A stretch of 64,000 bases of DNA from Cordylochernes scorpioides (Eukaryota > Arthropoda > Arachnida > Pseudoscorpiones > Chernetidae): assembly GCA_030710605.1 (NCBI GenBank), contig CP092882.1, positions 3,667,106 to 3,731,105 on the forward strand, given 5' to 3'. This document shows, piece by piece, positions 3,383-63,745 of the stretch. Position 1 is the stretch's first letter. Every line of letters starts with the position of its first letter. A program made the translations under genes and the position numbers. The notes under the pieces are model-generated. The model searched no databases and was not told the origin of the DNA. It saw only the letters and a list, made by a program, of their open reading frames with translations.

Positions 3383-3974
3383 CCTGACGGGAGGTGAAAA
3401 AATCGGCTGCATCGTTGTCTCTGCGAAATTTTGCCTCCGTCGTCTGCCATTAAAAAGCAATTAACCCGATGTCGTTTGAATATTTTAGCCGTGTAATTAT
3501 TACTTGACGATCTCCACTTCCAATGAAAGGGAGGTCATTCTCTTCTTTACTCTGAACCTCTTTAATTGAGGCATCCCAACTCCATGGCGTTGGAGGCAAA
3601 ATTATATTTTCTCTCTTTTTTTTTTTAGAAAATGTTCCCAGAGATTTTGGTAGGTGCTGCAGCTCCTAGTGAGGAAGGAAGGTTACAACATGGCGTAAAA
3701 CAACAGCGGATGTTGGGGATGGATTCGTACAACGTAAGTGTGGATCCAGCACCGAGATCTTCTTGCCGGGAAATGTCTTTGCGGGAATGTGGAGATCTAG
3801 AGGACAGAGATATTGAAGCCGCCGAATATCAAACCATTACTTTAAGTATCGTCCAGCAGGCCGCGGACGTCCAACATTTACAACGAGAACCATCCAAGGT
3901 TTGTGCAAGTTTACAAGGTCAGCCACGACTGGTCTCCGGTCCCTCCCAGTACACTTTCCGAATACCATCCCTAA
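3383..3974 (+). other. Unassigned; weak exon candidate at 3629-3733
   Basis: Mostly featureless. One interval looks exon-like: a long pyrimidine tract ending in TTTAG at 3628, an open frame of 35 codons containing ATG at 3632, and a GTAAGT donor at 3734 (phase 0). The peptide resembles nothing I know. A lone acceptor/donor pair of this kind is weak evidence. Confidence 0.15.
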
Positions 3975-4040
3975 GTGTGGCACATATAAGCAGAATCGCC
4001 CAATACAATGTTAGAGCTCTTAAACAATGTGGCCAACACG
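3975..4040 (+). repeat. Fragment of a dispersed repeat family (the 'GGCGAAACCGC' family)
   Basis: The string around CCAATACAATGTTAGAGCTCT matches the same part of the copies at 51050-51235 and 55160-55310. Only this edge of the element is present here. Confidence 0.5.
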
Positions 4041-7000
4041 CCATCAACAACTCGAGCCATTTTGAAAGCCAAGACCCAGCAAGAATATAACATGTACCAG
4101 GGTTGATGATGGCTTGCGCCAACTATCGGACATTAACGTTACTATAAAAATCATTCGCTGGTTGGGAGCTTGTTCAAACAATAACATCAAACGTATTTCC
4201 CGATGCTTCGACCGTCCTCAAGGGAATGCTGAGTTCTCGAAATATAAGAATTAGAAGTCCCGCCATAACGCCAGTACTTCTGTAAATTAACGTTGTGTTA
4301 TTGTGCACATTAGACGCGGTAAACCAAGAAAGCCAGGTCTGTACGGCTGTACGACCAAACAAGGAGATGGTTCAAGGAACAAAAGGTATTTAAGACCAAA
4401 GGTGTGCGAGCACAGGGCGTTTTTTTTTTCAATTGGAATTTACACCGGGAATGCAGTTAAATGGAGGTCTTCCTACCTACATTTCTGAAAACTTCTTATT
4501 GGAAAGGAATTATGTAAAGTCAACGGTGTGTGCAGGTTCAACAACATGACGTTTCAACTGTTCAACCATCCTATTGGTTGGCCCCACAGACCAATCAGCG
4601 CCTGTGCTGTGGAATTCCCCAGTTTTTGCTTCGCCCGTCTCCGCGGTTTTTGTGAGGAGAGCGGTCATGGTCAAGATGAGGAGGCAAACATCTTATTTTA
4701 GTTTTGTATTGGGACGTCGGTGTGCCACAGAGATGTCTTCACAACTTAACCCCAAAATACACAAGTAATATATCTAGATGCTTTTATAAAAATAAAATTA
4801 AAATGGTGATTTTTTTTTCTTTCAAAATGTTTGCATTCCTTAAGCTGACCCCAGGACATGATTTGGAATTCTCCGGGGGGTTGAACGTGGTGTTGAAGTC
4901 AAACAGAATAATTTCGTCTCGACCCGGAACGCCCGTACACAGACTCCAATACTTTGTATCCTCGAGTTTCATTCCAGATTGGAAACATCCGCCCACGACA
5001 ATAATATGGAGGTCTCAGCTGCTAAGTCTGTTGGTTCAACTTCCCTAACAGTTGTCTAGCCCTCAGACACTGGGTGTTCCTGGGAGAACACAGTTTGACC
5101 TGGTGATTTCCCACTTATTGCGGCGACCAGAGCCAACACAACTCCATCAACAACCTAAGACACACCAGGGACATTTTCCCTGAGTCGGAACAACGATAAC
5201 AAGTTTATAAACTCAGATTTGTATGTTGACGGCAGGTTTGTTTGTACGCCGTGTTATCCCTGTACTGACCCGGCCACTGACCATCCAAGCCTACGCAGTC
5301 CTGAATGTCGACAAGCTCGGCAAATATGCCCCCAGTAGTGGCTGTCAACATCGGCCGAACAAACACGGGCAGCAGTCCGGCAGACGATCATTAGCGCGCC
5401 ATTAGTCATCTGCTGCATTCCTCCAGCTGGCCATTAATGACATGTTTGGGGACATTCGCTTTTATCTCACGGAAACCACATTTCCTCGAACCTGAGAGCC
5501 TCGCTTAGTTTTACACACCATGTACATGAACACTTCTTTGGTCTCAAAAAAAAAAAAAAAAGGCGAAACAGAATTTACGTCTGACACACGCGTTTCCTTC
5601 AATAAATAAACTAAATATTAACTAAAAATCATATCAATCGCACATTTTTATCCACTCAAATAATTTCAAAAGGAGTGGAGCTTGCAATTAAATTTGTATA
5701 GCGCGCGTGTAGAGTCCCTAGTTGCATAACGTCAGATAGGGACAGCCACTGGGCAGCCTTGGATGACTTTTGGAAACCAGATTCTTTTATACAAACAAGA
5801 CCAGCACAAACAAAGGGGTCTCGAGACCTCCCACCGAGCCCCGCTGTTTACGTCCCCCGCCCCCAGGAAATGTTGACCGGACGAAAACTTCCAATTAACG
5901 GCGTTCTCTGTGATCGGCTGCCGACAAAAGTCCGCTAATCAGTGTTGCCGAGTGTAGTTACTGCCGTACAGGTAGCCAGCCCACTATCCAATGGTGCCAT
6001 AGTCCAAGTCTTGTTGGACGTCGCCGCCACCATGGCACATGTCGGCCTATCATTAACAACTGCCTCTTTGACATAATGGAGCGCATGAAGCCGTCCAGGA
6101 CTGACACAGACCACAAGGTGGCGATTTGAATTCGTCAAAGCTGGTGATTGTCACCGACAGTCTCAGTCTGGTGGAGACGGCTTAGAGACAATTTTGTGAC
6201 GAGAAGGTGACCTTATAATAAAAGTTGTCTTGTGTCCGCCAACGGTGACACCAAAGGTATGAATGAGTCATCGTCATGGCGTTGTTTGCTCCAACACTCC
6301 GTATGATGATAAAACCCTTCGTAAAATATTTTTTTCGTATTTACACATTGTTCTAGTTCAATTATATAATTACACCATGTATATGTAATATCTACACAGA
6401 TTTTATTTAATAATATCTCTATCTCTCTTTGTAATTTTTTTTCGTAAAAAAGATCATTAAAAAAATTGTCAGTTCCTCAAGTATTTGTCCAGACGACCAA
6501 CATCCTTCTCTCTCTCTACGTCAATACAACGGCCGTCACAGAGGACATTTTAACTGACGAGGGCTACTTTCTATTTCGTAATCCTGTAGAAATAAAATTG
6601 GAAAAAAGGTGGGGCGGGGAGAAGTCCGACCACACTCCTGGACCCTTGGAATATTCGACCAAGTCCAAGGTGGCTGACTGCTGTGACATCTGAGACTCTT
6701 CATTGGACACGACAACATAACATACTTCTGACATCGCCGTGCTGACGTCGGGCAGTTATCCAAAGTAAAACAAGAAGTCTTCTGTATGGTCCAGGTAACC
6801 AAACAAGGACCACGGTTAAACAACAAACTACTCTTAAACGGCCAGTCAGGGACAGAAGCTGGAGGCAAGGTGTCGCATACAACTCTTACTGTGGGTGGAC
6901 TAACGGAGGCATAACGCCAACCAAGGCATGGTCCGGGGCACTATCGGGCCTGTCGCACGGATGTACTTCCCAATATTCCACACAATCTCTGCAACTGTCT

Positions 7001-25480: not shown

Positions 25481-26706
25481 GTCTTCAATGTATTTCCACG
25501 ACCAAGTCTCCGACCCACACATTCGTCCCGGATATAACGTATAAAAACAGACGAACAACATCAAACAGCTGATTGCGACTCAACGGTGAGCTACGCCATC
25601 TACCAGCAGAATTATCAACTAAACGTTTTTCTATTCATTTTCCAAAAATGGGGCCAATTTCCTGAAAGACGTATGTGGTTAGATTTTCGTGGTTGATGAA
25701 GAAAAGGTTTCAGCCAATATTATTTGAAATCTAAATAACATAATCCCCTGCGAACCAATAATTCAGAACATCAGGCCTCCAGGAAAAATTTTCTTTTTTA
25801 AAATTTTTTATTTGATAAATCTCTAGAGATTTCGAGCCCGAAAGTTAAAGATTTGTCAAATAAAATATTAAAAAGAAACTTTTCTCTGGATGTCTGATGT
25901 CTTCACTTTGATTTAAATAAGAATTCTTCGTTTTTTAGTTCAAATTTAATCTCAAAGGTGACGACTCATGCATCATCAGACTTCAATTGGACCTCTGATC
26001 TTCTTCGTTTATATTGTTCTCTTTGTTGCTGCGGACCGAAGTTGCGCACCTCGCGGTAAACAAAAGTTGTTCAATTATTAAAACAACCTGGCCTAGCGTG
26101 TTGATGTACTGGGCGAGATGTTGCCACCAGGGGTCCGAAGAAATAAGTATCTCACCTCTTTTTCCACTTGTTTTCACAGTTTAAAAATATTTGAAAATAA
26201 ATTTGTATTTAGACTTTTAGAGTTTGATCAGAAAAGATTAAATATTAGGATCACAGGAATGGCGCAGTCCTGGGCGGTGTGTCCGACCGACCGAGCGGAG
26301 GACTGGTCTTCAGGCATTTCCCCTCTGTCAGGAATTACTCACTGCCGTTTTTTTACCCCACAAAACTCCCATTGTTGTGGAAGCTGTTTCTTCCAATCGG
26401 CGCAAAGTTTCCAGTAGCGTCGTTTTCTACAGGCGGTAAACGGAGTTTTGTTGTTTTCTACCGCGTGATCATCATTGATTCACTTATCATCATCATCACT
26501 GCCCTCTATCGCCGCCCACAATGGAGACTTTTTTCAACGCTGATTTATAAAATAAATAAGTCAAAATTATTTCTACCAACTTTGTACTGTTATGATCAAT
26601 TCTAATTTTTTTTTTTTTTTTTTGGAATTCCATTATACAAGGTCTGTAGAAATTCAATTAAGTTGAGCTTTGAAAAATTGTCTCAAATTTCGGTGTTTCT
26701 TTTGAT
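25481..26706. other. Unassigned sequence containing one hairpin
   Basis: No gene is supported. It contains the inverted repeat at 25781-25886, listed separately, and a long T run at 26606-26623. Confidence 0.5.
25781..25886. repeat. Palindromic element, probably PLE-related
   Basis: Imperfect arms of about 45 bases (left from CCAGGAAAAATTTTC, right ending in AACTTTTCTCTGG) surround a centre with GAGCCCGAAAG. The CCCGAAAG centre resembles other PLE-type cassettes in this window. Confidence 0.5.
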
Positions 26707-43251: not shown

Positions 43252-45672
43252 CTATTCATGGATCACTTCGCCGCTTAAGAGTCTCGAACGATGAAGTTCG
43301 TGTAGGTTTCTCCCCTTATTTACTTCAGTACTGAGGAGTGCAATTGAGTTCTGAGCATTTAGCTGGTTCCTTAGGATCATTGGATGAGATCGAGTAGGAG
43401 AAGGCTTTACAGTATCTTCATTATGGCTGTCCTCTTCTGTAGGTATCACGTCTTCTTGATCTAATAAAGACACTGGATTATCTTCAATCTCCCGTTGAGT
43501 CCCATAGCTGTAGTGTTCAACTGATGGAAGCTTCTCCCGGTTTCTGTCGTTCCTCGATACATCACTCTCTTTGAAGACACAGTCCCGAGATTCCACCACT
43601 TTCTTCATCTCAGGAATCCACACTCTGTAGCCACGTCCTCTGAGTGCATATCCAACAAGGTTACCTTTGACAGCTCTTCTTTCGAGTTTGGATTTACGGA
43701 CTTGCCTTGGAATATGGACAAATACTTGACAGCCAATAGCTCTTAGGTGTTTAAGACTAGGCTTGTTCCCTGTCCACAGTTCATATGGCGTACTTTCACC
43801 ATTGTGATTGTTGAGAACTCTGTTTCTGACATAGGCTGCGGTGTAAGTCAGCTCCGCCCAGGAAGCCTTTGGCAGACCACTTCCAGATATAGTGCTCCTG
43901 ACAAGATCTAGGAGTGTCCTATTCATTCTTTCTGCCACACCATTCTGTTGGGGTGTATACGTCATAGTGTGTTCATGAACTATTCCAACGCTCTTGCAGA
44001 AAGTGTCCCATTCTTTGGAACAAAATTCCAAGCCATTATCCGTACGTATTCGTTTTAGTTTCCGGCTGGTTTGTTTCTCAGATTCTTGAATCCACTCTTT
44101 GACTTTTCCCAGGGTTTCGCCTTTGTTTTTCAGGAAAAATACACTTGTATATCTCGTAGCTTCATCAATGATGGTTAAGACGTACTTGGCTCCTCCCCAG
44201 CTCAATACGTCGAGTGGACCCATCAAATCCGCATGCACCAAGTCCAACGGCATGATTTCTTTTTCCTCCTTGTGTGAGTGTTGAAGGAATGGCAGACGGT
44301 AAGACTTGCCGATCAAGCAGTCTTCGCACTTTTCTGGCTTTGCCGGGCTGCAATTAAGTCCTCTTACGCTTTGGTTCTTGGCCATCTTTGCTATCGTATA
44401 TGCATTTACATGCATCAGCCTTTTGTGCCAAAGTTCCAGTGTAAGCTCTTCCTTGCATTCAGATGCAAGAGAAACACGATCATTCTGATCTTTCGGAGAG
44501 GATGGAGTAGTCTGGACGTAGTAAAGTCTACCCAGCTTCTTTCCCTCTATCAAGAGTTTACCTTTCATGTCCATAATGTGGCAACCACTCTTATTGAAGA
44601 CAACTTTTCTACCGTTTTCTATCATTTGGAGTACAGACAGAACACTGTGACGCAAATCTGGAACATACAAGGTGTTCTGGGCAACCATATTGCTGGCATC
44701 TCCCTTGTGTCCAACAATATTGGCACTGACAGTACCGATACCACATGCTTCTATAGAAGAGCCATTCGCAATAGTGATGGAACTCATATTGCTTGTGCAC
44801 TCTTTCAGACATGTGAAGTAATTTCTCTTGGGAGTCATATGGTGCGTCGCTCCAGAATCTATGATCCAGGTCTCGGCGGTAGCTCCAAACAAAGTGTTGC
44901 ACATTGCCGACATATTTACGCCTTTGTTTTGGTCAAACCTCTTTGGTCTGTGTTCATTCTTTCCTTTCTTCTTGCATTCCCTTGCATAATGGCCTTTACC
45001 TCCACATTTGAAACAAACAACCTTTGCTTTAAATTGTTTTTCTGTTTCAATGGGCTTCGAAGAGGCATTAACGACCATGGCACCCACATCTTTTGGTAGA
45101 TTAGACGAACGCCTTTCTGCTTCTGCCAACAGCCGTCTTTTAACTGTGGCGGTCGTGAAGTCTGAATCAGGCAAGTTACATATGGTTGAGACAACGATGT
45201 CCCAATCCTCTGGTAATCCACCCAAAAGAACCATAGCCAAATCGCCATCATCAATTTTGTCGCCAATTTGGGCCAGTTCGTTTACAATGTAGTTTATCTT
45301 CCCCATATACCCTTCCATATTGCTGTGCTGAGTCAACCTTCCGCCATATAACTGCCTTCTTAGTTGTACGGCTCGATATCTACTATCCTTTGGTGCGTAT
45401 AATTTTTCCAGTTCCTCCCAGACCTCTTTTGGAGTATTCAAATGTTGAACATGCAATTGTTGTTCATCATTAATCCCGAGGCAAATTTTTGCAAACGCCT
45501 TACCCTCCCGCGACAAAAAAAGTTTTGTTGCAACAAGGTCACTAGGGTCAGGCTTAGCCTCTCCTGGATTGATCAAACTCCACAAATCGTTTTCGATTAG
45601 AACGAGTTTCATCTGGAAGCTCCAGCTGGAGTAATTAGCACCATTTAATTTTGTAATCGTTGTGTTTGCCAT
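43252..45672 (-). CDS. Copia Gag-protease-integrase polyprotein, RT-less (806 aa)
   Basis: An intact frame from ATG at 45672. Domains in order: Copia-type Gag (1-200; early TKLNGANYSSWSFQMK motif); zinc knuckle C220-C223-H228-C233 (CX2CX4HX4C) for RNA binding; aspartic protease with D272-S273-G274 in WIIDSGATHHMT; integrase zinc domain H416, H421, C449, C452; integrase core with D482, D545 and E581 (D,D-35-E spacing); then a tail typical of the Copia region after integrase (GYRVWIPEMKKV). The family usually continues into reverse transcriptase and RNase H; here the frame ends at residue 806 just before the LTR. All catalytic residues I can check are present, so a functional Gag, protease and integrase are plausible. 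Some diverse residues after 710 may reflect a deletion junction. Confidence 0.97.
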   Translation of the reverse strand: MANTTITKLNGANYSSWSFQMKLVLIENDLWSLINPGEAKPDPSDLVATKLFLSREGKAFAKICLGINDEQQLHVQHLNTPKEVWEELEKLYAPKDSRYRAVQLRRQLYGGRLTQHSNMEGYMGKINYIVNELAQIGDKIDDGDLAMVLLGGLPEDWDIVVSTICNLPDSDFTTATVKRRLLAEAERRSSNLPKDVGAMVVNASSKPIETEKQFKAKVVCFKCGGKGHYARECKKKGKNEHRPKRFDQNKGVNMSAMCNTLFGATAETWIIDSGATHHMTPKRNYFTCLKECTSNMSSITIANGSSIEACGIGTVSANIVGHKGDASNMVAQNTLYVPDLRHSVLSVLQMIENGRKVVFNKSGCHIMDMKGKLLIEGKKLGRLYYVQTTPSSPKDQNDRVSLASECKEELTLELWHKRLMHVNAYTIAKMAKNQSVRGLNCSPAKPEKCEDCLIGKSYRLPFLQHSHKEEKEIMPLDLVHADLMGPLDVLSWGGAKYVLTIIDEATRYTSVFFLKNKGETLGKVKEWIQESEKQTSRKLKRIRTDNGLEFCSKEWDTFCKSVGIVHEHTMTYTPQQNGVAERMNRTLLDLVRSTISGSGLPKASWAELTYTAAYVRNRVLNNHNGESTPYELWTGNKPSLKHLRAIGCQVFVHIPRQVRKSKLERRAVKGNLVGYALRGRGYRVWIPEMKKVVESRDCVFKESDVSRNDRNREKLPSVEHYSYGTQREIEDNPVSLLDQEDVIPTEEDSHNEDTVKPSPTRSHPMILRNQLNAQNSIALLSTEVNKGRNLHELHRSRLLSGEVIHE

Positions 45673-45689
45673 TTTACAAAATATTTGGT

Positions 45690-45819
45690 AAGTAGAAAAA
45701 AAGGATGGTCCAAGTAATCAAAGGAAATTTGTTTACTCACGTTTTAGGCCTTGCGCTTCTTCAGTCTGACGTTTTAAGTCTTGCGCTTCTTGTCTCAAGT
45801 TTTAGGCCTTGCGCTTCTT
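45690..45819 (-). repeat. Short direct repeats in the Copia 5' leader
   Basis: Between the ORF and the primer site a unit of about 30 bases with TTGCGCTTCTT occurs three times (about 45750-45820); two copies are followed by CAGTCT. The repeated part overlaps the beginning of the primer-site sequence. This may be slippage or template switching near the priming site. Confidence 0.7.
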
Positions 45820-45834: not shown

Positions 45835-46031
45835 TGTTGTATTCCAATTGATTACACACAGCGCTCAACGTTAATTATACTTTAATTAACTACAAGGTAA
45901 AGGGATTAGATATAGATTAAAAAGTAAACATGGAGAAAAAGAGAAAAAGAATAAGTCTCGTGGCCACGCGGCCTCGCCTGGGTTACATCCACAGGTAGTG
46001 ACGTCAGAGCTCCAGGGTTGCCGAGCCAGCA
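45835..46031 (-). repeat. 5' LTR of the Copia element
   Basis: 197 bases identical to 43032-43228; followed by the right ACACT target duplication. Confidence 0.97.
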
Positions 46032-46036
46032 ACACT

Positions 46037-46429
46037 CCCAATATATTTTCCATCCCAGTAAGGACAAACGAAAGTTTGTTTTAGTTGAAAAAGAAAAATT
46101 CGTGCTTCAATGGTTTTATTTCTCATGTTTTGTATCTGTTTTGACGGGAGAGGTGACACCTGCCTATTTAACCACAGTGTGGATGACAATTTATTTAAAT
46201 CTAAACATTCCGCAACTTGTTCCCATGTAAGAGAGGCCCGTGGAGGTACAACGGGGTTGACAGGTATTGACAGAAACTTACTGAGTGACAAAATAATCTA
46301 ATCGATATAAATTCATTTTAAAATACAACACTTTGTCAAAATCTCAATTCTATTTTTAGCATCGCGTTTATTCATTGTAACAAGATTGTATTCATTAACC
46401 AAACTTTCGAGCCCTCCCTCTGCTGCGGT
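46037..46429. other. Unassigned sequence
   Basis: No supported feature between the Copia element and the right inverted arm. Confidence 0.5.
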
Positions 46430-46929: not shown

Positions 46930-47346
46930 AATGCATTAAAACTGGGGTGATAAGCAACACATATATTTTAAGACGAAAAAAGTGTGCACCTTAACCCAGT
47001 ACAATGTCACATTTGTACAATTGTTGCATATCTACATATAGCTCTGTGTCTAGCGACAGTACGACACCCGAGTGGAGGTCGCATATGCAAATGTGGACGG
47101 TGACTTCTCCATTGTCCGTGAGGGAAGGTCACCCGACGGCCTTGAGGGGTCACCTAATGAGGTTCCTGACACGGGGCCCCCTGGGTTACGTCATCTCGCT
47201 GTGACATAATTGTGTAAAATTTGACATTTATCCTGCTTGATAATGCACACATTTACTGGGACTGGTGCAAAAACAACAGATTGCCATGATAACTTGCCAC
47301 TGTGCAAACTTCCCTCGTTGTAACTCTGTTTTTTTTTTTTACAAGT
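46930..47346. other. Unassigned sequence
   Basis: No gene is supported. The string CCCAGTACAATGTCACATTT near 46995 also occurs, slightly altered, near 63138, so a dispersed repeat edge lies here. Confidence 0.45.
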
Positions 47347-48359: not shown

Positions 48360-50110
48360 TAAATCATTCCTCCAGGGAAGAGTGTCTTCTTCAAAAACAT
48401 TTTATTGTTCTCTAGCTTTCGGGCACGGACGTCCTTCTACAGGAGAAAACCTGGTATAATGACTTTTTTTTTTTGAAGGATAATTAAGGCTATTGCTTTT
48501 TGTTATAGGGTTTCTTAGTAGTGAACTTAAACTGGGTGAGTTGCAGAAGAAGGTTTTAACGCCGATATTTTTTCAGATGACGAGCTATTGATATGGATAC
48601 AGGTGAGTAGGGAATACTGCAAATAGATTTGTAAACTGGGGGATTTCGCATTTCAGACGGGCTATGGGAATGTCTTAAAATAAACGATAAAGGATATTGG
48701 CAGGTTTTTAGATTTCTTAAGATGTTCTGGGTCTCTTCTGTTTTGAAGGTCTGAAGTGAGCAGTGGCTATGGACACGTTTGGTAAGGGTCTTTACGGTAT
48801 TGATTTTATGGCTGAGAGGGCAGTAGGAGGAAAAACGGATATAGTCGGGGTTGAAAGATGGTTTATAGTGAACGGTTGTTTGGAATTTATTCTCTATACG
48901 CATGAATTTTACATCTAAAAAAGGCAGGCTATTGTTTGTTTCTTTTTCACAGGTGAAACCCAGGTCGGGATGGTAACTGTTCAGTTTTTCCAGAATTGTA
49001 TTGGTTTGGGTGTCGGGGCAGATACAAAATATATCGTCGATATATCGACGCCATAACATTATGTCGGACGGAAATAGTGAATTTATCCACCTGTCAATGC
49101 GGCGCATGACAATTTCTGCCACTGAGATTGAAAGAGAGCTTCCCATGGGAGAACCTTTTGTCTGTTTGTAGGTCTTGTAATTGTATGTTATGATATTTGC
49201 CTCAAGGCATAAGGCTATAAGTTTGGATATTTTCCCTACAGTGATCAGATCGATAGGATTTTCTTTCAAGAATTATTCTGTGCTGTTTAGTATCAGTTGG
49301 TGTGGGAGACTGGGGTACAGGGATTTGACATCAAAAGAAACCATGATCTTGTCTGATGGGGCTTGGCACTTGAGTACTTCTTCTATGAATATGGAGGTGT
49401 TAAATATGGAGTATTGGAAGCTTTGTTGTTGTATTATTGGTTTAAGAAATGCTGAGATAAATTTGGAAAGAGGTGCTGTTGGGGAACGGTAAGAAGGCAA
49501 CTATGGGTCTTAGAGGGACATCTGGCTTGTGAATTTTGGGGAGGCCATATATATGGGCATCGGTCTGCATGTTGGATAGGAAGTCTTTTAATTCTTCGTT
49601 CGTAATTTTATTTTCCCTATTCATTTTTCTAAGTTCTTTTTTATATGTGGAGTATATTCGGGTTTTTTCTTCTATGGAAATATGCTTGAAGGTGGTTGGG
49701 TCTTCGAGTATGCTTCGCATTTTTTGGTGGTAATCGGATTTATCTAAAATCACTGTATGTCCCCCCTTGTCTGAATGGGTGATGATAATTTTTTTTCTGT
49801 TTTTTTTTAGGTCTTTAATAAGTCTGTTTTCATGTGGGTTGAATTGGGGAAGGATCACGGGTTCATTTAGGAGGTTGGTCACGTGGTGTCTGATGATGTT
49901 TTTCTCTTGATTGTTAAGCCTTGAAACGGCGGCCTCGACTCCACTTACTATTTTGATTGGGTCTGGTTTTTGAATATTTCGGAATTTCATACCTTTAGAA
50001 AATAAGGTTAATTCTTCCGGATTTAGCGTAGTTTTCGACAGATTGATTATTGTGGTGGTGTTTTTATTCCGATTTAATTTTGGGTTATTGAATTTTACTG
50101 CCCAAGTTTC
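48360..50110 (-). mobile_element. Penelope-like element, decayed, endonuclease domain missing
   Basis: On the minus strand, an N-terminal PLE region and reverse transcriptase (about 50085-48480) are followed closely by a terminal-repeat-like segment at about 48460-48400 reading TGTAGAAGGACGTCCGTGCC then CGAAAGC, the PLE 'CTGwwGAAGG...CGAAAGC' pattern. The GIY-YIG endonuclease normally found between RT and the terminus is absent, so this is an internally deleted copy. Confidence 0.8.
48480..50090 (-). pseudogene. Penelope-like reverse transcriptase, frameshifted
   Basis: It reads in three main frames. First, 49990-49442: THSDKGGHTVILDKSDY and HIYGLPKIHKPDVPLRPIV, which are PLE N-terminal and early RT motifs; upstream in-frame sequence back to about 50085 also looks coding. 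Second, 49500-49273: VSFDVKSLYPSLP, RT motif A with its catalytic Asp. Third, 49269-48556: QTKGSPMGSSLSISVAEIV (motif B), WRRYIDDIF (motif C, with the YIDD catalytic Asp pair) and LPFLDVKF. A further shift near 48555 leads into a short linker, then it stops. PLEs prime at DNA ends or nicks and copy RNA into the genome. At least three frameshifts make this copy non-functional. Confidence 0.9.
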
Positions 50111-50231
50111 GTTTTACGTCATCCGAATTTAGAAAAATGGTTTTATTTGAACAATCTCATGCCAAGTCATTTCTATTTATGAAAAATTCCAAAATGCATA
50201 ATATAAGGAAAACAGGAAATACAATTGTTAT

Positions 50232-50345
50232 AGAGGTAGGGTAGATTAAACTGGCGAAACCGCTAGGAGGGCTCACCACTGATGAGTCAGGCCCTCCAAA
50301 TATTTCCATCCTCCCTTCAGTGTCTGTAGAAAATTGTCTCTCTGT
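50232..50345 (+). repeat. Dispersed repeat ('GGCGAAACCGC' family) copy, inverted
   Basis: GATTAAACTGGCGAAACCGC, AGGAGGGCTCACCACTGATG, then GTCTGTAGAAAATTGTC. Opposite orientation to the copy at 51050-51235. Confidence 0.7.
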
Positions 50346-50659
50346 GACAATTAAAAGACAAAACAATCATGGTTGATCATTTTCAAAGTAATCCAGTCAT
50401 TTTTGTAAAGCTTCCTACGCGGCCAACACTGCCCGATCCCCCGTCTTTTTCACGTGTTAAAGCGTGATCACGCAAATTCAACCTTAAAATCCCATTTCTT
50501 CATTCATAAAGAAAATAAAGCAAAGTTATAAAGTGGTGGGTCACGTGGTTGGTTTTGTCTTGCTGAGTCAAGAAACGACATTTGGTCAATAGTCAGAAAT
50601 ATAATTCGTTTATTCACCGATAGATGGCGCTCTGCAATCTTCATTTGCTTTTTAAAATT
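50346..50659. other. Unassigned sequence
   Basis: No gene or element is recognised here. Confidence 0.5.
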
Positions 50660-50930
50660 ATTATTATCCCTAGTACACTCGTGGTACAGTCAGCCATGAT
50701 AATCATGGTGGGCAGTAGTTAGCGACTGATTTTTACTGTAAGCGCATATGTCTATATATGTAGAAAGCAGTTCGACTTTTGCACTTACAAATATGCCAGA
50801 GCCCCGTTTGGTTACTTGCAATCTCTGGCGGGGTTGGACTTTTACAAGAATCGGAGGTCATTGGGGAAATTTTTAATTAGAAAAAAAGTGTCCAATGCAG
50901 GATTCGACCCCAGGATGTCGACGGTCACTC
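50660..50930 (-). mobile_element. SINE copy, minus strand, nearly full length
   Basis: The reverse complement of the 59451-59764 SINE: the 3' end (TTATTATTATCCCTAGTACA) is at the left, then TGATAATCATGGTGGG, AAAGCAGTTCGAC, GCCAGAGCCCCGTTTGG, GGACTTTTACAAGAATCGG, and the B-box part (GGATTCGACCCC) near 50905. Its 5' end abuts the 121-bp-period array. Confidence 0.85.
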
Positions 50931-51967
50931 CGCCATATATGTAAATACAGTGTAACAATGTAAATTAACACAAAGCAATAACGCTCCATCTATACATATA
51001 AAATAAAAGGATTCAAAAGCGCGAATGTTTCTTTTATACATAAAACGAACTTCTACTGTCCTTACTGCGATGAAAAAATATATTGGGAGGGCTTGGCTCA
51101 TCAGTGATGAACCCTCCCAGCGGTTTCGCCAATTTAATCCACCAGACCGCTTCTCAGAGCTCTAATACTGTATTGGATCATTCTGCTTTTATATGCTACA
51201 CTGAAGGATGGAATCTTAGGAATGGTTTTCAAGTAAACTATGGACATAAGCTTATAGGACAGTAGAATTACATTCAAATATTTGCTTCGAGCAATGCTCT
51301 TCAGCAAACTATAAAGACAAGAACATTAGGAATAAATTAACACAAAGCAATAAGCACAAAGCAATGTAAATACAGCGTGACTATGTAAATACAGTGTAAC
51401 TATGTAAAACCTTCACACAGAGATTTGCACATTAAAGATATAGAACGTATGTTTCCCCGCCATATATGTAAATACAGTGTAACAATGTAAATACAGCGTG
51501 ACTATGTAAATACAGTGTAACTATGTAAAACCTTCACACAGAGATTTGCACATTAAAGATATAGAACGCATGTTTCCCCGCCATATATGTAAATACAGTG
51601 TAACTATGTAAATACAGCGTGACTATGTAAATACAGTGTAACTATGTAAAACCTTCACACAGAGATTTGCACATTAAATATATAGAACGTATGTTTCCCC
51701 GCCCTATATGTAAATACAGTGTAACTATGTAAATACAGTGTAACTATGTAAATACAGTGTGACTATATAAATACAGTGTAACTATGTAAAACCTTCACAC
51801 AGAGATTTGCACATTAAAGATATAGAACGTATGTTTCCCCGCCATATATGTAAATACAGTGTAACTATGTAAATACAGCGTGACTATGTAAATACAGTGT
51901 AACTATGTAAAACCTTCACACAGAGATTTGCACATTAAAGATATAGAACGTATGTTGTCCCGCCATA
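50931..51967. repeat. 121-bp-period array built from 20-bp subunits
   Basis: The subunit ATGTAAATACAGTGTAACTA (with CAGCGTGAC variants) is grouped with a TTCACACAGAGATTTGCACA block and a CGTATGTTTCCCCGCCATAT block. The block recurs at 51421, 51542, 51663, 51803 and 51924, i.e. every 121 bases with one interval longer by a 20-base subunit. A 351-base insertion interrupts it at 50982-51332, and the Helitron splits it at 51967/54100. Confidence 0.93.
50982..51332 (-). mobile_element. PLE-related 351-bp insertion between 21-bp direct repeats
   Basis: The same 21-base sequence (TAAATTAACACAAAGCAATA plus A) lies at 50961-50981 and 51333-51353. The insert contains the best copy of the GGCGAAACCGC repeat family (51050-51235) and, near its right end, CTTCGAGCAATGCTCTTCAG, which in reverse reads CTGAAGAGCATTGCTCGAAG, the decayed PLE/hammerhead-type core. 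It is probably a non-autonomous retroelement with a long target duplication. Confidence 0.65.
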
Positions 51968-55098: not shown

Positions 55099-55159
55099 TT
55101 TATGGGAGGTTTCACCGAAATTCCTTCTATCAAATACCGTATCCTATAGTGCCACGCGT

Positions 55160-55310
55160 ATAAGCAGTATCGTCCAATACAGTATTAGAGCTCTGAAAAG
55201 CGGTCTGGTAGATTTTATTGGCGAAACCGCTGGGAGAGTTCACCACTGATGAGCCAGGCCCTCCCATCAATTTATCATTACAGTAAGGGCAGTAGATAAT
55301 TGTTTTATTA
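55160..55310 (+). repeat. Dispersed repeat ('GGCGAAACCGC' family) copy
   Basis: GTCCAATACAGTATTAGAGC, TTGGCGAAACCGCTGGGAGA, CACTGATGAGCCAGGCCCTC and TACAGTAAGGGCAGTAGA in order. GGGAG...CCTCCC and the centre can fold back. Confidence 0.75.
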
Positions 55311-56069
55311 AAAAAAGAATCGTACGCGCGTCAAAAATAGTTTCAATTTTTTACAACAGATGGCGTAATAATAGATCACGTGGTCACGCCGCCATTGTTC
55401 CCTCCAAACCTTTAAACAAACCGATTTATTGTTTATTTTAAAACACAAGTTGATTCCGCGCACACAAGAACTGCTCAGACCTTCCATTCCGTTCTATGAC
55501 AGCACGCCTCGCCACGGCCGTAACAGCAGTTCCAATTCTCAAATGGCCGTTTCATTGTACGACTGAAGGTTTGAGAGACCAAAATCTGGACAAACTGGGA
55601 TTGTAGCTACCAAGGAGTGAACCTAGGGAGCGGCTCCCTGCGCCAACTTTCTGACTCTGAGGGTCCTGATTGGTTGGCAGATTCAGGGGAAGGGTACATA
55701 TTGGAGCGTAAGACGGGTTTGTCCAGGTCCAAGCAGGCTGAGATCAACTCCTAACCCCACGGACCGCACCAAATGTCACCAGTTCCTACTGGCTGACCGA
55801 CCTACAGCCACTACTAAGTTAGGTGACCGTCCATCCATCTGTGCTGTTGAAGTTAGAGCCATCTGGATTATTTCTGGGAATATTGTCAGGAGGACAGAGT
55901 TTTCCCTCTTATCTGGACTGGACCGGACGGGGTAAACAGTGGCGCCACGTGGAAGGTAGAAAAACTCAGTTCTCCCCTCTAACTGCTGGGTCGATTTGGC
56001 TCATGTACATAGTAACTTTTATTTTATATTTAAAATCTTTCCTAGACGACCAGACGGAATAAAAGAAGA
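55311..56069. other. Unassigned sequence, moderately GC-rich
   Basis: 55440-56000 is richer in GC than average, but no splice-bounded frame or domain is convincing. Confidence 0.45.
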
Positions 56070-59032: not shown

Positions 59033-59149
59033 ATGTATTAGAATTTTATTACCTGTTTTTAGCTTACACCTGGTGGATTAAAATGACAAAATCGCTCGGA
59101 ATGTCCACTTACTGATATGTGATGACCATTAAGGACATCACCAAAAAAA

Positions 59150-59773: not shown

Positions 59774-60034
59774 TCAGGATCTGAAGCTCTCCTCTATTTC
59801 AAGAAGTTGAGAAAACACAGCAATAGAAGGGCGAGTTCATTTTGTGCAAATGTGAAACACCTCTCTCTCACACAACCCAGTTACCAGAAATTCTCAAAAT
59901 CCAGAAATTTTAAAACACTTCACACAGTTCCTATTTATATAACATAAAAAACTCCAGAAGAAAACAATTACATATAACTACAAGAAAATAAGACCTAATC
60001 CAAATAAATAGTGTGTGACAACTCAGTAACAGCG
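59774..60034. other. Unassigned sequence
   Basis: No supported feature; the left arm of the next inverted structure begins at about 60000. Confidence 0.5.
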
Positions 60035-61110
60035 TTTATTCTTTTGTCTGATGATGGTAACAACGCTGTTACTGAAATGTCACACACAATTTATTTGGAT
60101 TAGGTTTTATTTTCTCGTAGCTATAATCTATAATTCAAATTGGGCTTTATCAATTGGATTTAATCTCCAGCAAGGTTCCAGCACACCAGAGGACAAACTT
60201 TTATAGCAGAACAAACTCTCTGTGCCTAGTGTCCTTTTGGGAGACTCTTACTGGAGGGTGGGTAATTCTGGCAACTGTCCTTTGTAGAGAGGTGTCCTCT
60301 AATGTGGGTGTCCTCCATGGAGGTATTCTACTGTTACAAGAGAAGGAATCACCAGACATCATCTTGAAGAAGGAATCAAAGATTTTGACGACGAGTTATT
60401 TTATTTGTGCTGTATAATCGGTAAGTTTTCGGACTTTGACGTCCTTCAACAGACTACTAGGGCGTTGAAGGAGGTCAGAGTCCGAAAGCTTGCCGATTAT
60501 ACAGCACAAATAAAAGAAACACGTCGCCAAAATCTTTGATTCCTTCTTTAATATTCTACTGTATTCTTATATACACTCATGGACAACACTTAAGGAAGTT
60601 GTAACGTTCAGCATGTATATCGGGATTGAGACAATAACTCTGAAAGATATTACAGTGACCTTTATTGAAGATAACTAGATGAACAACACGCGTGAAAAAA
60701 AATTGCTTTGGTCTCCCCATCATCAGATATTTAAAAACTTGAATTATTTGCATATCTGCACACACACAGGGAGCCAGATGGATAAAGTAAAACCTTCATG
60801 AGAGGATACTCCGGCTAGAGGACACCTCTCTATAAAGGACAGTTGCCAGAATTACCCCCCTCCAGTAAGAGTCTCCCAAAAGGACACTAGGCTCAGAAAG
60901 TTTGTTCTGCTGTAAAAGTTTGTCCTATGGTACTCCCAGGATGAGGTTTCAAATGTTTGAGAGACCCTTGCTGGAGATTATGTTAAATCCAATTCATAAA
61001 GCACAATTTGAATTATAGATTAAAGCTATGAGAAAATAAAACCTGATCCAAATAAATTAATTGTGTGTGACGTTTCAGTAACAGCATTGTTACCATCATC
61101 AAAATTACCA
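60035..61110. repeat. Large inverted repeat with arms of about 300 bp
   Basis: 60035-60334 is the imperfect reverse complement of about 60783-61110. Matched pieces in order are TGATGATGGTAACAA, TTATTTGGATTAGGTTTTAT, TATAATTCAAATTG, GAGATTAAATCC and a MITE segment (CTAGTGTCCTTTTGGGAGAC and GTCCTCTA). The spacer holds the palindromic cassette 60335-60551 and about 230 bases of other sequence. Confidence 0.8.
60324..60562. mobile_element. Palindromic PLE-type cassette with 11-bp target duplication
   Basis: TATTCTACTGT occurs at 60324-60334 and 60552-60562, bracketing 217 bases. The insert is palindromic: AATCAAAGATTTTGACGACG to CCTTCAACAG on the left, GTTGAAGGAGGTCAGAGTCC to AAAATCTTTGATTCC on the right. 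The centre has GGCGTTGAAGGAGG and GTCCGAAAGC, the PLE terminal pattern. The target is the end of a MITE. Confidence 0.75.
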
Positions 61111-62603: not shown

Positions 62604-62842
62604 CTTTTAAAATCCCAAAATATTCTCATTGCAGTAGGTCTCAGGTTTATTTATGGGGAGTGATTCATCTTGGTAGGCCATGGTCACTAAGGCCTGGTCC
62701 AATGTTGGGTTCGTAGTACGGCCCAGGAAGGTCTTTGGGTTCTCTCAGACCAGTTGTAGTGGGCTTGCTAACTTTATCAGCATATTTTTATTTAAATACA
62801 GCTTATTAACACAAGATTATTATTATTTTTACAAAAATATCT
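62604..62842. other. Unassigned sequence
   Basis: No supported feature. Confidence 0.5.
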
Positions 62843-63124
62843 ATTAAGAAGAAGGCATCTCCTTATCGTGCAACTGAAAGTTGCTGATGGCTGGCGCCAT
62901 CTATCGGAATAAATATCAACTATTCTCGTTGATTTTTACCACGCTGATGAGGGCCAACAGCCCGAAACGCGTCCGTGGTTAGCTTTTCTTGATTAATCAA
63001 GAATGGGTATTTGGCCAAATCTGGAATAATTAAAAATCAACGAGAATAGTTGATATTTATTCCGATAGATGGCGCCAGCCATCAGCAACTTTCAGTTGCA
63101 CGATAAGGAGATGCCTTTTCTTAA
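62843..63124. repeat. 95-bp inverted repeat flanking a hammerhead ribozyme
   Basis: 62843-62937 and 63031-63124 are nearly perfect reverse complements (for example GGCATCTCCTTATCGTGCAA and CTGATGGCTGGCGCCATCTA). The 93-base centre holds the ribozyme at 62938-62979. The layout fits PLE terminal repeats in opposite orientation or a compact ribozyme-bearing retroelement. Confidence 0.92.
62938..62979 (+). ncRNA. Hammerhead ribozyme, type I with minimal stem III
   Basis: The conserved core is complete: CTGATGA at 62944-62950 and GAAA at 62964-62967. Stem I is ACCACG (62938-62943) with CGTGGT (62974-62979), six pairs. Stem II is GGGC/GCCC with loop CAACA. Stem III is two pairs (AC with GT) around a GC loop. 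The predicted cut is after C62973 in GTC. A two-pair stem III is the hallmark of hammerheads in Penelope-like elements, which may cleave best as dimers. The role would be processing of element RNA. Confidence 0.88.
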
Positions 63125-63566
63125 TTTATGCACCTTTTCCCAGTACAATGTTACATTTGTACTATTTTTTCAAAAATATCTATATATTTTTAAATAACAA
63201 AAAACCTCCTTTCGCAGTAGGAAATTGGTTTTAAACTGGAAAATATCAAATGGAATTTTGGATATTTCTGAGCTATAAACACAAGAAAGTAGTTTCTCCA
63301 GACCACAAGATCCTCCGTGGGGAAACCTCCATCCATAGTCCTGGCCACAGCTCTTTGACAAGTTGTGAAGAGTTCCTCATGGATGAAACCAAAGCCAGCT
63401 TTAGACTGACGTGGGCCATTAGCCTGAAACATAGTCTCCAGGTGGGGGCTGTAAATTTGCCCAAGCCACCACTACCCAAATTTGCTAGATTTGAGAGATG
63501 GTTTCTGACACTATTTTGATGGAAGGAGACTTTTAGAGAAATTAGTAAATAAGTAAATGTTGATGT
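63125..63566. other. Unassigned sequence
   Basis: The segment 63290-63520 is GC-richer and open on both strands but has no recognised motif or splice context. The beginning shares CCCAGTACAATGTTACATTT with 46995. Confidence 0.4.
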
Positions 63567-63745
63567 GACATAACACAAGGTAATAAGACCAAATAAATAA
63601 ATAGTGTGTGACATTTTGGTAACAGTGTTGTTACCATCTTCAGACAAAGTACTGAATCTTTGTCTGAAGATGGCAACAACGTTGTTACCAAAATGTCACA
63701 CACTATTTATTTATTTGGATTTGGTCTTATTACCTTGTGTTTATA
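63567..63745. repeat. Palindromic PLE-type cassette, near-perfect
   Basis: AACACAAGGTAATAAGACCA to CATCTTCAGACAAAG mirrors CTTTGTCTGAAGATGG to TTATTACCTTGTGTTT around TACTGAAT. Each arm carries the hammerhead-like CTGAAGATGG...AACAACG...ACCAAAATGTCAC pattern, too altered to be active. Confidence 0.88.

What the first reader, a model, noticed from the sequence alone, without database searches (positions are those of the whole stretch)
62843..63124. Hammerhead ribozyme with complete core at the centre of a 95-bp near-perfect inverted repeat
All core bases and three stems are present, with the two-pair stem III typical of PLE ribozymes. The ribozyme sits between long complementary arms with no protein-coding part, so the unit may be a compact non-autonomous ribozyme retroelement rather than a simple PLE end. 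On transcription the arms could form a 95-bp stem that either presents or hides the ribozyme.
Basis: partly seen in the sequence, partly recalled or inferred. Interest (0 to 1): 0.7.

Follow-up and report, generated by a model that had tools for sequence, protein, structure and literature searches.

The report
Hammerhead ribozyme inside an inverted repeat
A short stretch of non-coding, probably mobile DNA carries an intact-looking self-cutting RNA motif in the loop of a 95-base-pair hairpin, flanked by what looks like an insertion scar, so it is probably a variant of known ribozyme-bearing jumping elements.

Summary
In detail: a minimal type I hammerhead (62938-62979, predicted cut after 62973) sits in the 92-nt loop between arms 62852-62938 and 63031-63117, 100% complementary; a stem-aware scan finds none in 60 shuffled windows. 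Two old relatives in the window keep opposite halves (25575-25720; 50538-50648). Best reading (0.5): a non-autonomous Penelope-type ribozyme retroelement whose arms face tail-to-tail, perhaps by fold-back priming; a TTAA-type MITE is the main rival (0.25). A special present/hide switch is not supported: 21 of 60 shuffled loops hide the ribozyme as well. Copy number is untested; the own-genome search did not complete in 15 tries. Interest 0.5, new variant of a known kind. Side finding, perhaps more novel: a dispersed repeat (51085-51151 minus, 55199-55265 plus, five degenerate or partial copies) that appears to encode a non-circularly permuted, type-SGC hammerhead; the best copy forms 25 of 25 pairs.

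The parts
62824..62844 (.). Left copy of a 21-bp direct repeat (candidate target-site duplication); its last two bases are also the outermost pairs of the inverted repeat
   Evidence: 20/21 identical to 63163-63183; 0 of 2000 dinucleotide-preserving shuffles of the two ~100-nt flanks reach it
62845..62938 (+). Left arm; holds three small hairpins (GCAACT..AGTTGC, GATGGC..GCCATC, ATCAAC..GTTGAT) and the block GCGCCATCTATCGG
   Evidence: complementary to the right arm; hairpins in the fold of 62843-62990
62938..62979 (+). Minimal type I hammerhead ribozyme; predicted cleavage between C62973 and C62974
   Evidence: stem-aware scan, 0 in 60 shuffled windows; Rfam Hammerhead_HH9 E 0.0066, sub-threshold
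62980..63030 (+). Rest of the loop: 7-bp hairpin 62986-63003 and palindrome TTTGGCCAAA 63010-63019
   Evidence: sequence and folds
63031..63125 (+). Right arm, inverted copy of the left arm (one 1-nt indel)
63126..63162 (+). 37-nt extension present only at the right end; candidate 'tail' or older target sequence
   Evidence: 63129-63162 resembles 46985-47018; lies between the direct repeats
63163..63183 (.). Right copy of the 21-bp direct repeat
25575..25720 (+). R1: old relative, left arm + degenerate hammerhead + middle; no right arm above shuffles
   Evidence: left-half score 289 against a maximum of 202 in 10 shuffled strands; alignment; 384 against 271 in 200 shuffles
50538..50648 (+). 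R2: old relative, hammerhead 3' remnant + middle + right arm; no left arm above shuffles
   Evidence: right-half score 224 against a maximum of 167 in 10 shuffled strands; alignment; 295 against 268 in 200 shuffles
4102..4130 (+). R3: arm block alone (GTTGATGATGGCTTGCGCCAACTATCGGA)
   Evidence: 26/29 identical, E 5e-5; the wider alignment of 4001-4250 does not exceed its shuffles
46985..47018 (+). Second copy of the right extension, without arms

Best explanation
The unit 62845-63162 is a young insertion of a short, non-coding ribozyme retroelement of the Penelope (PLE) pseudo-LTR kind. Its RNA is leader (left arm), minimal type I hammerhead, about 50 nt, inverted copy of the leader, 37-nt tail. 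It was inserted by target-primed reverse transcription supplied in trans and is bounded by a 21-bp target duplication. The arms most likely arose when the 3' part of a sense RNA folded back just upstream of the ribozyme and primed copying of its own leader, which leaves the ribozyme single in the loop (tail-to-tail). In the RNA the hammerhead could cut at 62973/62974 while only the leader has been made; later the arms zip into a 95-bp duplex. Shown: hammerhead motif, arms, direct repeat, degenerate relatives. Inferred: PLE machinery, fold-back priming, cleavage, mobility.
For: Ribozyme motif far above chance and with the very short stem III that papers tie to PLEs (PMC7761336, passages; PMC7229834, introduction). 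21-bp direct repeat exactly at the left arm edge, 0 of 2000 shuffles. A 37-nt extension at one end only; A. vaga PLEs carry an optional 31-bp tail at one of two inverted pLTRs, several have TSDs of 8-10 bp, and self-priming on a sense template is said to give tail-to-tail arms (PMC3846280, passages). A degenerate RT ORF that I take to be a PLE lies in the same window, 48556-50113 minus. R1 and R2 show that both halves exist in older copies.
Against: No other copy with both arms was seen. The similarity of the right extension to 46985-47039 runs past 63162 into the right direct repeat, so the extension could belong to a pre-existing target repeat. 21 bp is longer than the PLE TSDs I read about, and some PLE inserts have none. 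The IR ends carry TTAA on both sides, as a TTAA-targeting MITE would. The PLE link rests on ribozyme type, not on shared coding sequence; R2 lies antisense to the nearby RT ORF. The minimum-energy fold of the isolated core also pairs core bases GAUG with CGUC, which is not the active fold. In a tested PLE, ribozyme mutants did not affect insertion in vitro and RNA-seq reads ending at the cut site were not found (PMC11167929, passages). No expression or cleavage data here.
Confidence: 0.5

Rival explanations
1. A miniature inverted-repeat DNA transposon (MITE) with long terminal inverted repeats and a TTAA target duplication, which captured a PLE-type hammerhead in its middle and is moved by a DNA transposase.
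For: Long near-perfect terminal arms; TTAA at 62844-62847 and 63121-63124; R1 and R2 keep opposite halves, as decayed TIR elements would.
Against: The 21-bp direct repeat would be a coincidence; TTAA is its own reverse complement and so is part of the inverted repeat anyway; no transposase relative identified.
Confidence: 0.25
2. A metazoan non-LTR retrozyme monomer: RNA made from tandem copies, cut by the hammerhead, circularised, reverse transcribed in trans.
For: Size (273-318 bp) and G+C of 0.41 fit the 150-450 bp, low-GC animal repeats, whose target duplications are said to exceed 4 bp (PMC7229834, results part 1); highly self-paired RNA.
Against: Retrozymes are tandem with canonical type I hammerheads; here one ribozyme in the window, and the unit ends at the arms, not at the ribozyme.
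Confidence: 0.12
3. A one-off fold-back rearrangement of an ordinary PLE pseudo-LTR end, with no life of its own.
For: Perfect arm identity implies one recent event; PLE inserts often carry inverted pLTR copies (PMC3846280); other palindromes crowd 58-64 kb.
Against: R2, an old copy, already has middle + inverted arm.
Confidence: 0.13

Closest known systems
Penelope-like element pseudo-LTR with minimal type I hammerhead
   Same: Minimal type I hammerhead with very short stem III; inverted terminal copies; one-sided 30-40 bp tail; direct-repeat flanks (compared with passages of PMC3846280, PMC11167929, PMC7761336)
   Different: No ORF; one ribozyme in the loop; arms tail-to-tail where head-to-head is described as most frequent; 21-bp duplication
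Metazoan non-LTR retrozyme
   Same: Short non-coding unit with type I hammerhead, self-paired RNA (PMC7229834)
   Different: No tandem copy in the window, minimal ribozyme, perfect long arms
TTAA-targeting MITE (recalled: piggyBac/Kolobok types)
   Same: Terminal inverted repeats, TTAA at both ends, no ORF
   Different: Carries a ribozyme; the longer direct repeat marks other borders

Membership tests
Type I (CGS) hammerhead ribozyme | CUGANGA, GAAA, UH core and three stems in type I order | tested here: met
   0 of 60 shuffled windows
Type I (CGS) hammerhead ribozyme | Self-cleavage at H17 | not testable with these tools
   needs an RNA assay
Minimal PLE-type hammerhead | Absent or very short stem III | tested here: met
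   2-3 bp; literature description
Minimal PLE-type hammerhead | No canonical contact between loops of stems I and II | not tested
   tertiary contacts were not modelled
Penelope-like element | RT (and GIY-YIG) ORF between pLTRs | tested here: not met
   no ATG ORF >=60 aa overlaps 62845-63162; it could only be a non-autonomous derivative
Penelope-like element | Inverted pLTR copy, one-sided tail, target duplication | tested here: inconclusive
   inverted arms, 37-nt extension and 21-bp direct repeat present, but arm orientation is the less usual one and the extension may be target sequence
Metazoan non-LTR retrozyme | Tandem units each with a hammerhead | tested here: not met
   single type I hammerhead in the window; other loci of the genome not seen
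TTAA-type MITE | Shared terminal ends in many copies with TTAA duplications | not tested

The most novel reading that the evidence does not exclude
Arm-hammerhead-middle-inverted arm is a conserved layout of its own: a family of ribozyme fold-back elements whose RNA is a 95-bp hairpin with a self-cutting loop, spread as such and possibly feeding the small-RNA pathway, distinct from PLEs and retrozymes.
Probability: 0.3. Interest if true: 0.75.

Novelty: new variant of a known kind. Interest (0 to 1): 0.5.

Why it matters
[quoted passage not shown] A natural unit with one such ribozyme, no ORF and a hairpin body would be a stripped-down test case: whether ribozyme plus leader is enough to be mobilised in trans, and whether inverted ends come from fold-back priming. 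The same window also holds what looks like a genome-encoded non-circularly permuted (type SGC) hammerhead in a dispersed repeat; the 2023 paper that defined this type reported none of its RNAs in genomes of known organisms apart from one GCS candidate (PMC10085705, section 13 and passages), so that side finding deserves its own study.

Tried and rejected
Hide/present switch: P(stems I and II) is 0.35 for a transcript 62845-62982, 0.17-0.36 for ends up to 63010, 0.007 at 63020, then 0.016-0.028 up to the full unit, but 21 of 60 shuffled-loop controls are as low as the full hairpin or lower (median 0.09), so I do not read it as a designed switch. A second type I hammerhead on either strand: none. 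Simple end of the RT ORF at 48.5-50.1 kb: R2 is antisense to that ORF. Pattern scans for relatives in viral contigs and genome contigs gave 0 hits; these are viral and prokaryote collections, so this says little. Two more scans for the permuted hammerhead also gave 0. Gapped local alignments of the element to the regions downstream of the permuted-hammerhead repeats were too loose to use, and I make no claim that the two families are linked. Pfam on five further ORFs: one match at E 0.15, below its cut-off, nothing relevant. The RT fragment against PDB sequences: three weak RT matches (E 0.006) and a nanobody (0.91); against plasmids: none. A search for a target duplication around the extension copy at 46985-47018 found only 5-8 nt matches. 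The CTCF-like reading of the arm block is recalled, not tested.

Full report
1. What is there. Region 62852-62938 is 100% complementary to 63031-63117 over 87 nt, with 92 nt between; allowing one 1-nt indel the arms run 62843-62938 and 63031-63125. It is the longest of 21 inverted repeats listed for the window. In the loop, on the + strand, lies a hammerhead core with stems of 6, 4 and 2-3 bp. The scan with stem rules finds only this one on either strand of 64 kb and none in 60 first-order-Markov shuffles. The bare core pattern alone is not significant (0.39 expected, 29 of 100 shuffles have one), so the stems matter. Rfam lists no hammerhead at gathering thresholds; a sub-threshold match to Hammerhead_HH9 (21.5 bits, cut-off 52, E 0.0066) covers the core, behind a better-scoring Enterococcus sRNA match (28.1 bits, cut-off 442) that I take for chance.

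2. Borders. Its left copy ends at the left arm edge; none of 2000 dinucleotide-preserving shuffles of the two flanks (about 100 nt each) gives as good a repeat ending there (best 13 against 18), and none of 1000 gives one at any position. Read as a target-site duplication it bounds a 318-bp insert, 62845-63162, with a 37-nt extension on the right only. Against this: 63129-63187 resembles 46985-47039 (48/59), and part of that similarity lies beyond 63162, so the extension may be older target sequence. No target duplication was found around the 46985 copy. A competing border is TTAA at 62844-62847 and 63121-63124, which is palindromic and therefore little informative inside an inverted repeat.

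3. Relatives in the window. The left-half query 62876-63020 scores 289 at 25501-25800 (+), against a maximum of 202 over 10 shuffled strands; the right-half query 62974-63085 scores 224 at 50401-50700 (+), against 167. With the whole unit and other gap costs the margins are 384 against 271 and, narrower, 295 against 268 (200 shuffles each). Aligned, R1 (about 25575-25720) keeps left arm, a degenerate hammerhead and the middle; R2 (about 50538-50648) keeps the 3' remnant of the hammerhead, the middle and the right arm including its GCAA..TTGC hairpin. The arm query finds no right arm by R1 (143 against a shuffle maximum of 146) and lists no left arm by R2. A third place, 4102-4130, has the arm block (26/29, E 5e-5), but its wider alignment does not exceed shuffles. 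So both halves existed in older copies, but no second copy with both arms was seen.

4. Surroundings. The window is eukaryotic (U6 snRNA and two tRNA genes), probably animal (inference). A Copia gag-integrase ORF lies at 43252-45717 minus and an RT fragment at 48556-49272 minus (Pfam RVT_1, E 5.7e-6, 26.6 bits, below the curated 29.6). I call the latter PLE-like from the recalled look of its TKGSPMGSSLS motif; this is not a tested classification.

5. RNA folding. Alone, the core forms stems I and II with P 0.67, but the minimum-energy fold adds a GAUG/CGUC helix between core letters; in the full hairpin P is 0.028. For transcripts from 62845, P is 0.17-0.36 for ends 62982-63010, 0.007 at 63020, then 0.016-0.028. 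In 60 controls with the rest of the loop shuffled, 21 were as low as the full hairpin or lower (median 0.09), so the loop is not special in hiding the ribozyme. Stem III, tertiary contacts and Mg are not modelled.

6. Mechanism. PLE inserts commonly carry an inverted pLTR and an optional 31-bp tail at one of the inverted pLTRs; several have TSDs of 8-10 bp, some none; head-to-head is most frequent, and self-priming on a sense template would give tail-to-tail (PMC3846280, passages). A purified PLE protein cuts and extends both strands and starts reverse transcription inside the RNA; ribozyme mutants did not affect insertion in vitro, and reads at the ribozyme cut site were not found (PMC11167929, passages). 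Papers say the role of minimal hammerheads in PLEs is open and propose PLEs as helpers of retrozymes (PMC7761336, passages; PMC7229834, introduction, first of three parts of the results, discussion). The unit here has one ribozyme, arms made of what precedes it, and the post-ribozyme sequence inside: that is tail-to-tail. I therefore prefer fold-back priming on a sense RNA, followed by trans-mobilisation (0.5). The MITE reading (0.25), the one-off rearrangement (0.13) and the retrozyme reading (0.12) remain.

7. What is novel. In the listings (openly licensed PMC texts only; most papers seen as title and abstract start) I saw no report of a hammerhead in the loop of a long inverted repeat. The nearest was the Schistosoma W-element paper, which has hammerheads in satellite-like elements and inverted repeats around other subunits (PMC8490949, passages). 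I grade the unit as a new variant of a known kind.

8. Side finding: a permuted hammerhead. While checking HHR-like motifs I found on the minus strand at 51151-51085 the three hammerhead blocks in the order cleavage site, GAAA, CUGAUGA: stem III 6 bp, H17 = C51145, stem I 7 bp (two G-U), stem II 5 bp, and a fourth 7-bp helix GGGAGGG/CCCUCCC. 25 of 25 pairs form; 0 of 200000 base shuffles with the core held fixed do so (maximum 21). The fold was chosen on this sequence, so that control overstates it. A scan for all six block orders on both strands (stem I >=4, II and III >=3) gives two places, both type SGC: this one (20 pairs over stems I-III) and 55193-55267 plus (15 pairs); of 100 shuffled windows 97 had none and the best had 13. 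That scan does not list the 62.9-kb hammerhead, presumably because of its short stem III. BLAST with a 361-nt query finds eight other places: 55159-55329, 47871-47754, 50232-50303, 40185-40083, 46023-46121, 3962-4020, 61717-61677 and 59070-59116. In an alignment of seven of the nine places (46023 and 3962 left out because the ribozyme part is lacking there) 74.3% of 175 cells pair against 32-44% when partners are slid; the structure was taken from one of the rows, which favours it. Column shuffles reach the paired percentage in 22, the covariation score in 28 and the number of both-side-changed pairs (4, in stems II and III) in 356 of 500, so covariation is weak evidence here. The two best copies follow a TATAAAAG or GTATAAG stretch. 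Type SGC was defined in PMC10085705 (section 13 and passages) from metatranscriptome data, with variants from a wider search; [quoted passage not shown] Of the 20 papers listed of 29 found, only that one holds the term. Rfam has no significant match there (Hammerhead_II, 12.3 bits, E 7.2). This is prediction only.

Noticed in passing
window 51085-51151 minus; 55199-55265 plus; degenerate or partial copies near 47871-47754 minus, 50215-50303 plus, 40185-40110 minus, 61717-61677 minus, 59070-59116 plus: Dispersed repeat that appears to encode a non-circularly permuted, type-SGC hammerhead ribozyme: all core letters, stems III/I/II of 6/7/5 bp and a fourth 7-bp helix in the best copy. The defining paper (PMC10085705, passages) reports none in genomes of known organisms apart from a GCS candidate.
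   Followed up: partly
window 63572-63741, 59973-60125, 60396-60518: Short-spacer palindromes (arms 55-64 nt, 91-95% complementary) whose arms look by eye like degenerate PLE-type ribozyme ends pointing outward (head-to-head), unlike the 62.8-kb unit; the motif scan with one mismatch does not pick them up.
   Followed up: partly
window 62894-62907, 63062-63075, 50617-50630, 4116-4129: The conserved arm block reads CCGATAGATGGCGC, close to a CTCF-type binding motif as I recall it; the relaxed pattern occurs 4 times in the window, all in this family, against 0.6 expected.
   Followed up: no
window about 50105-50125 minus: The degenerate RT ORF may start at a hammerhead-like GGATGACGTAAAACGAAAC stretch, as in Anolis Poseidon where the ORF starts within the ribozyme (PMC11167929); seen by eye only.
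   Followed up: no
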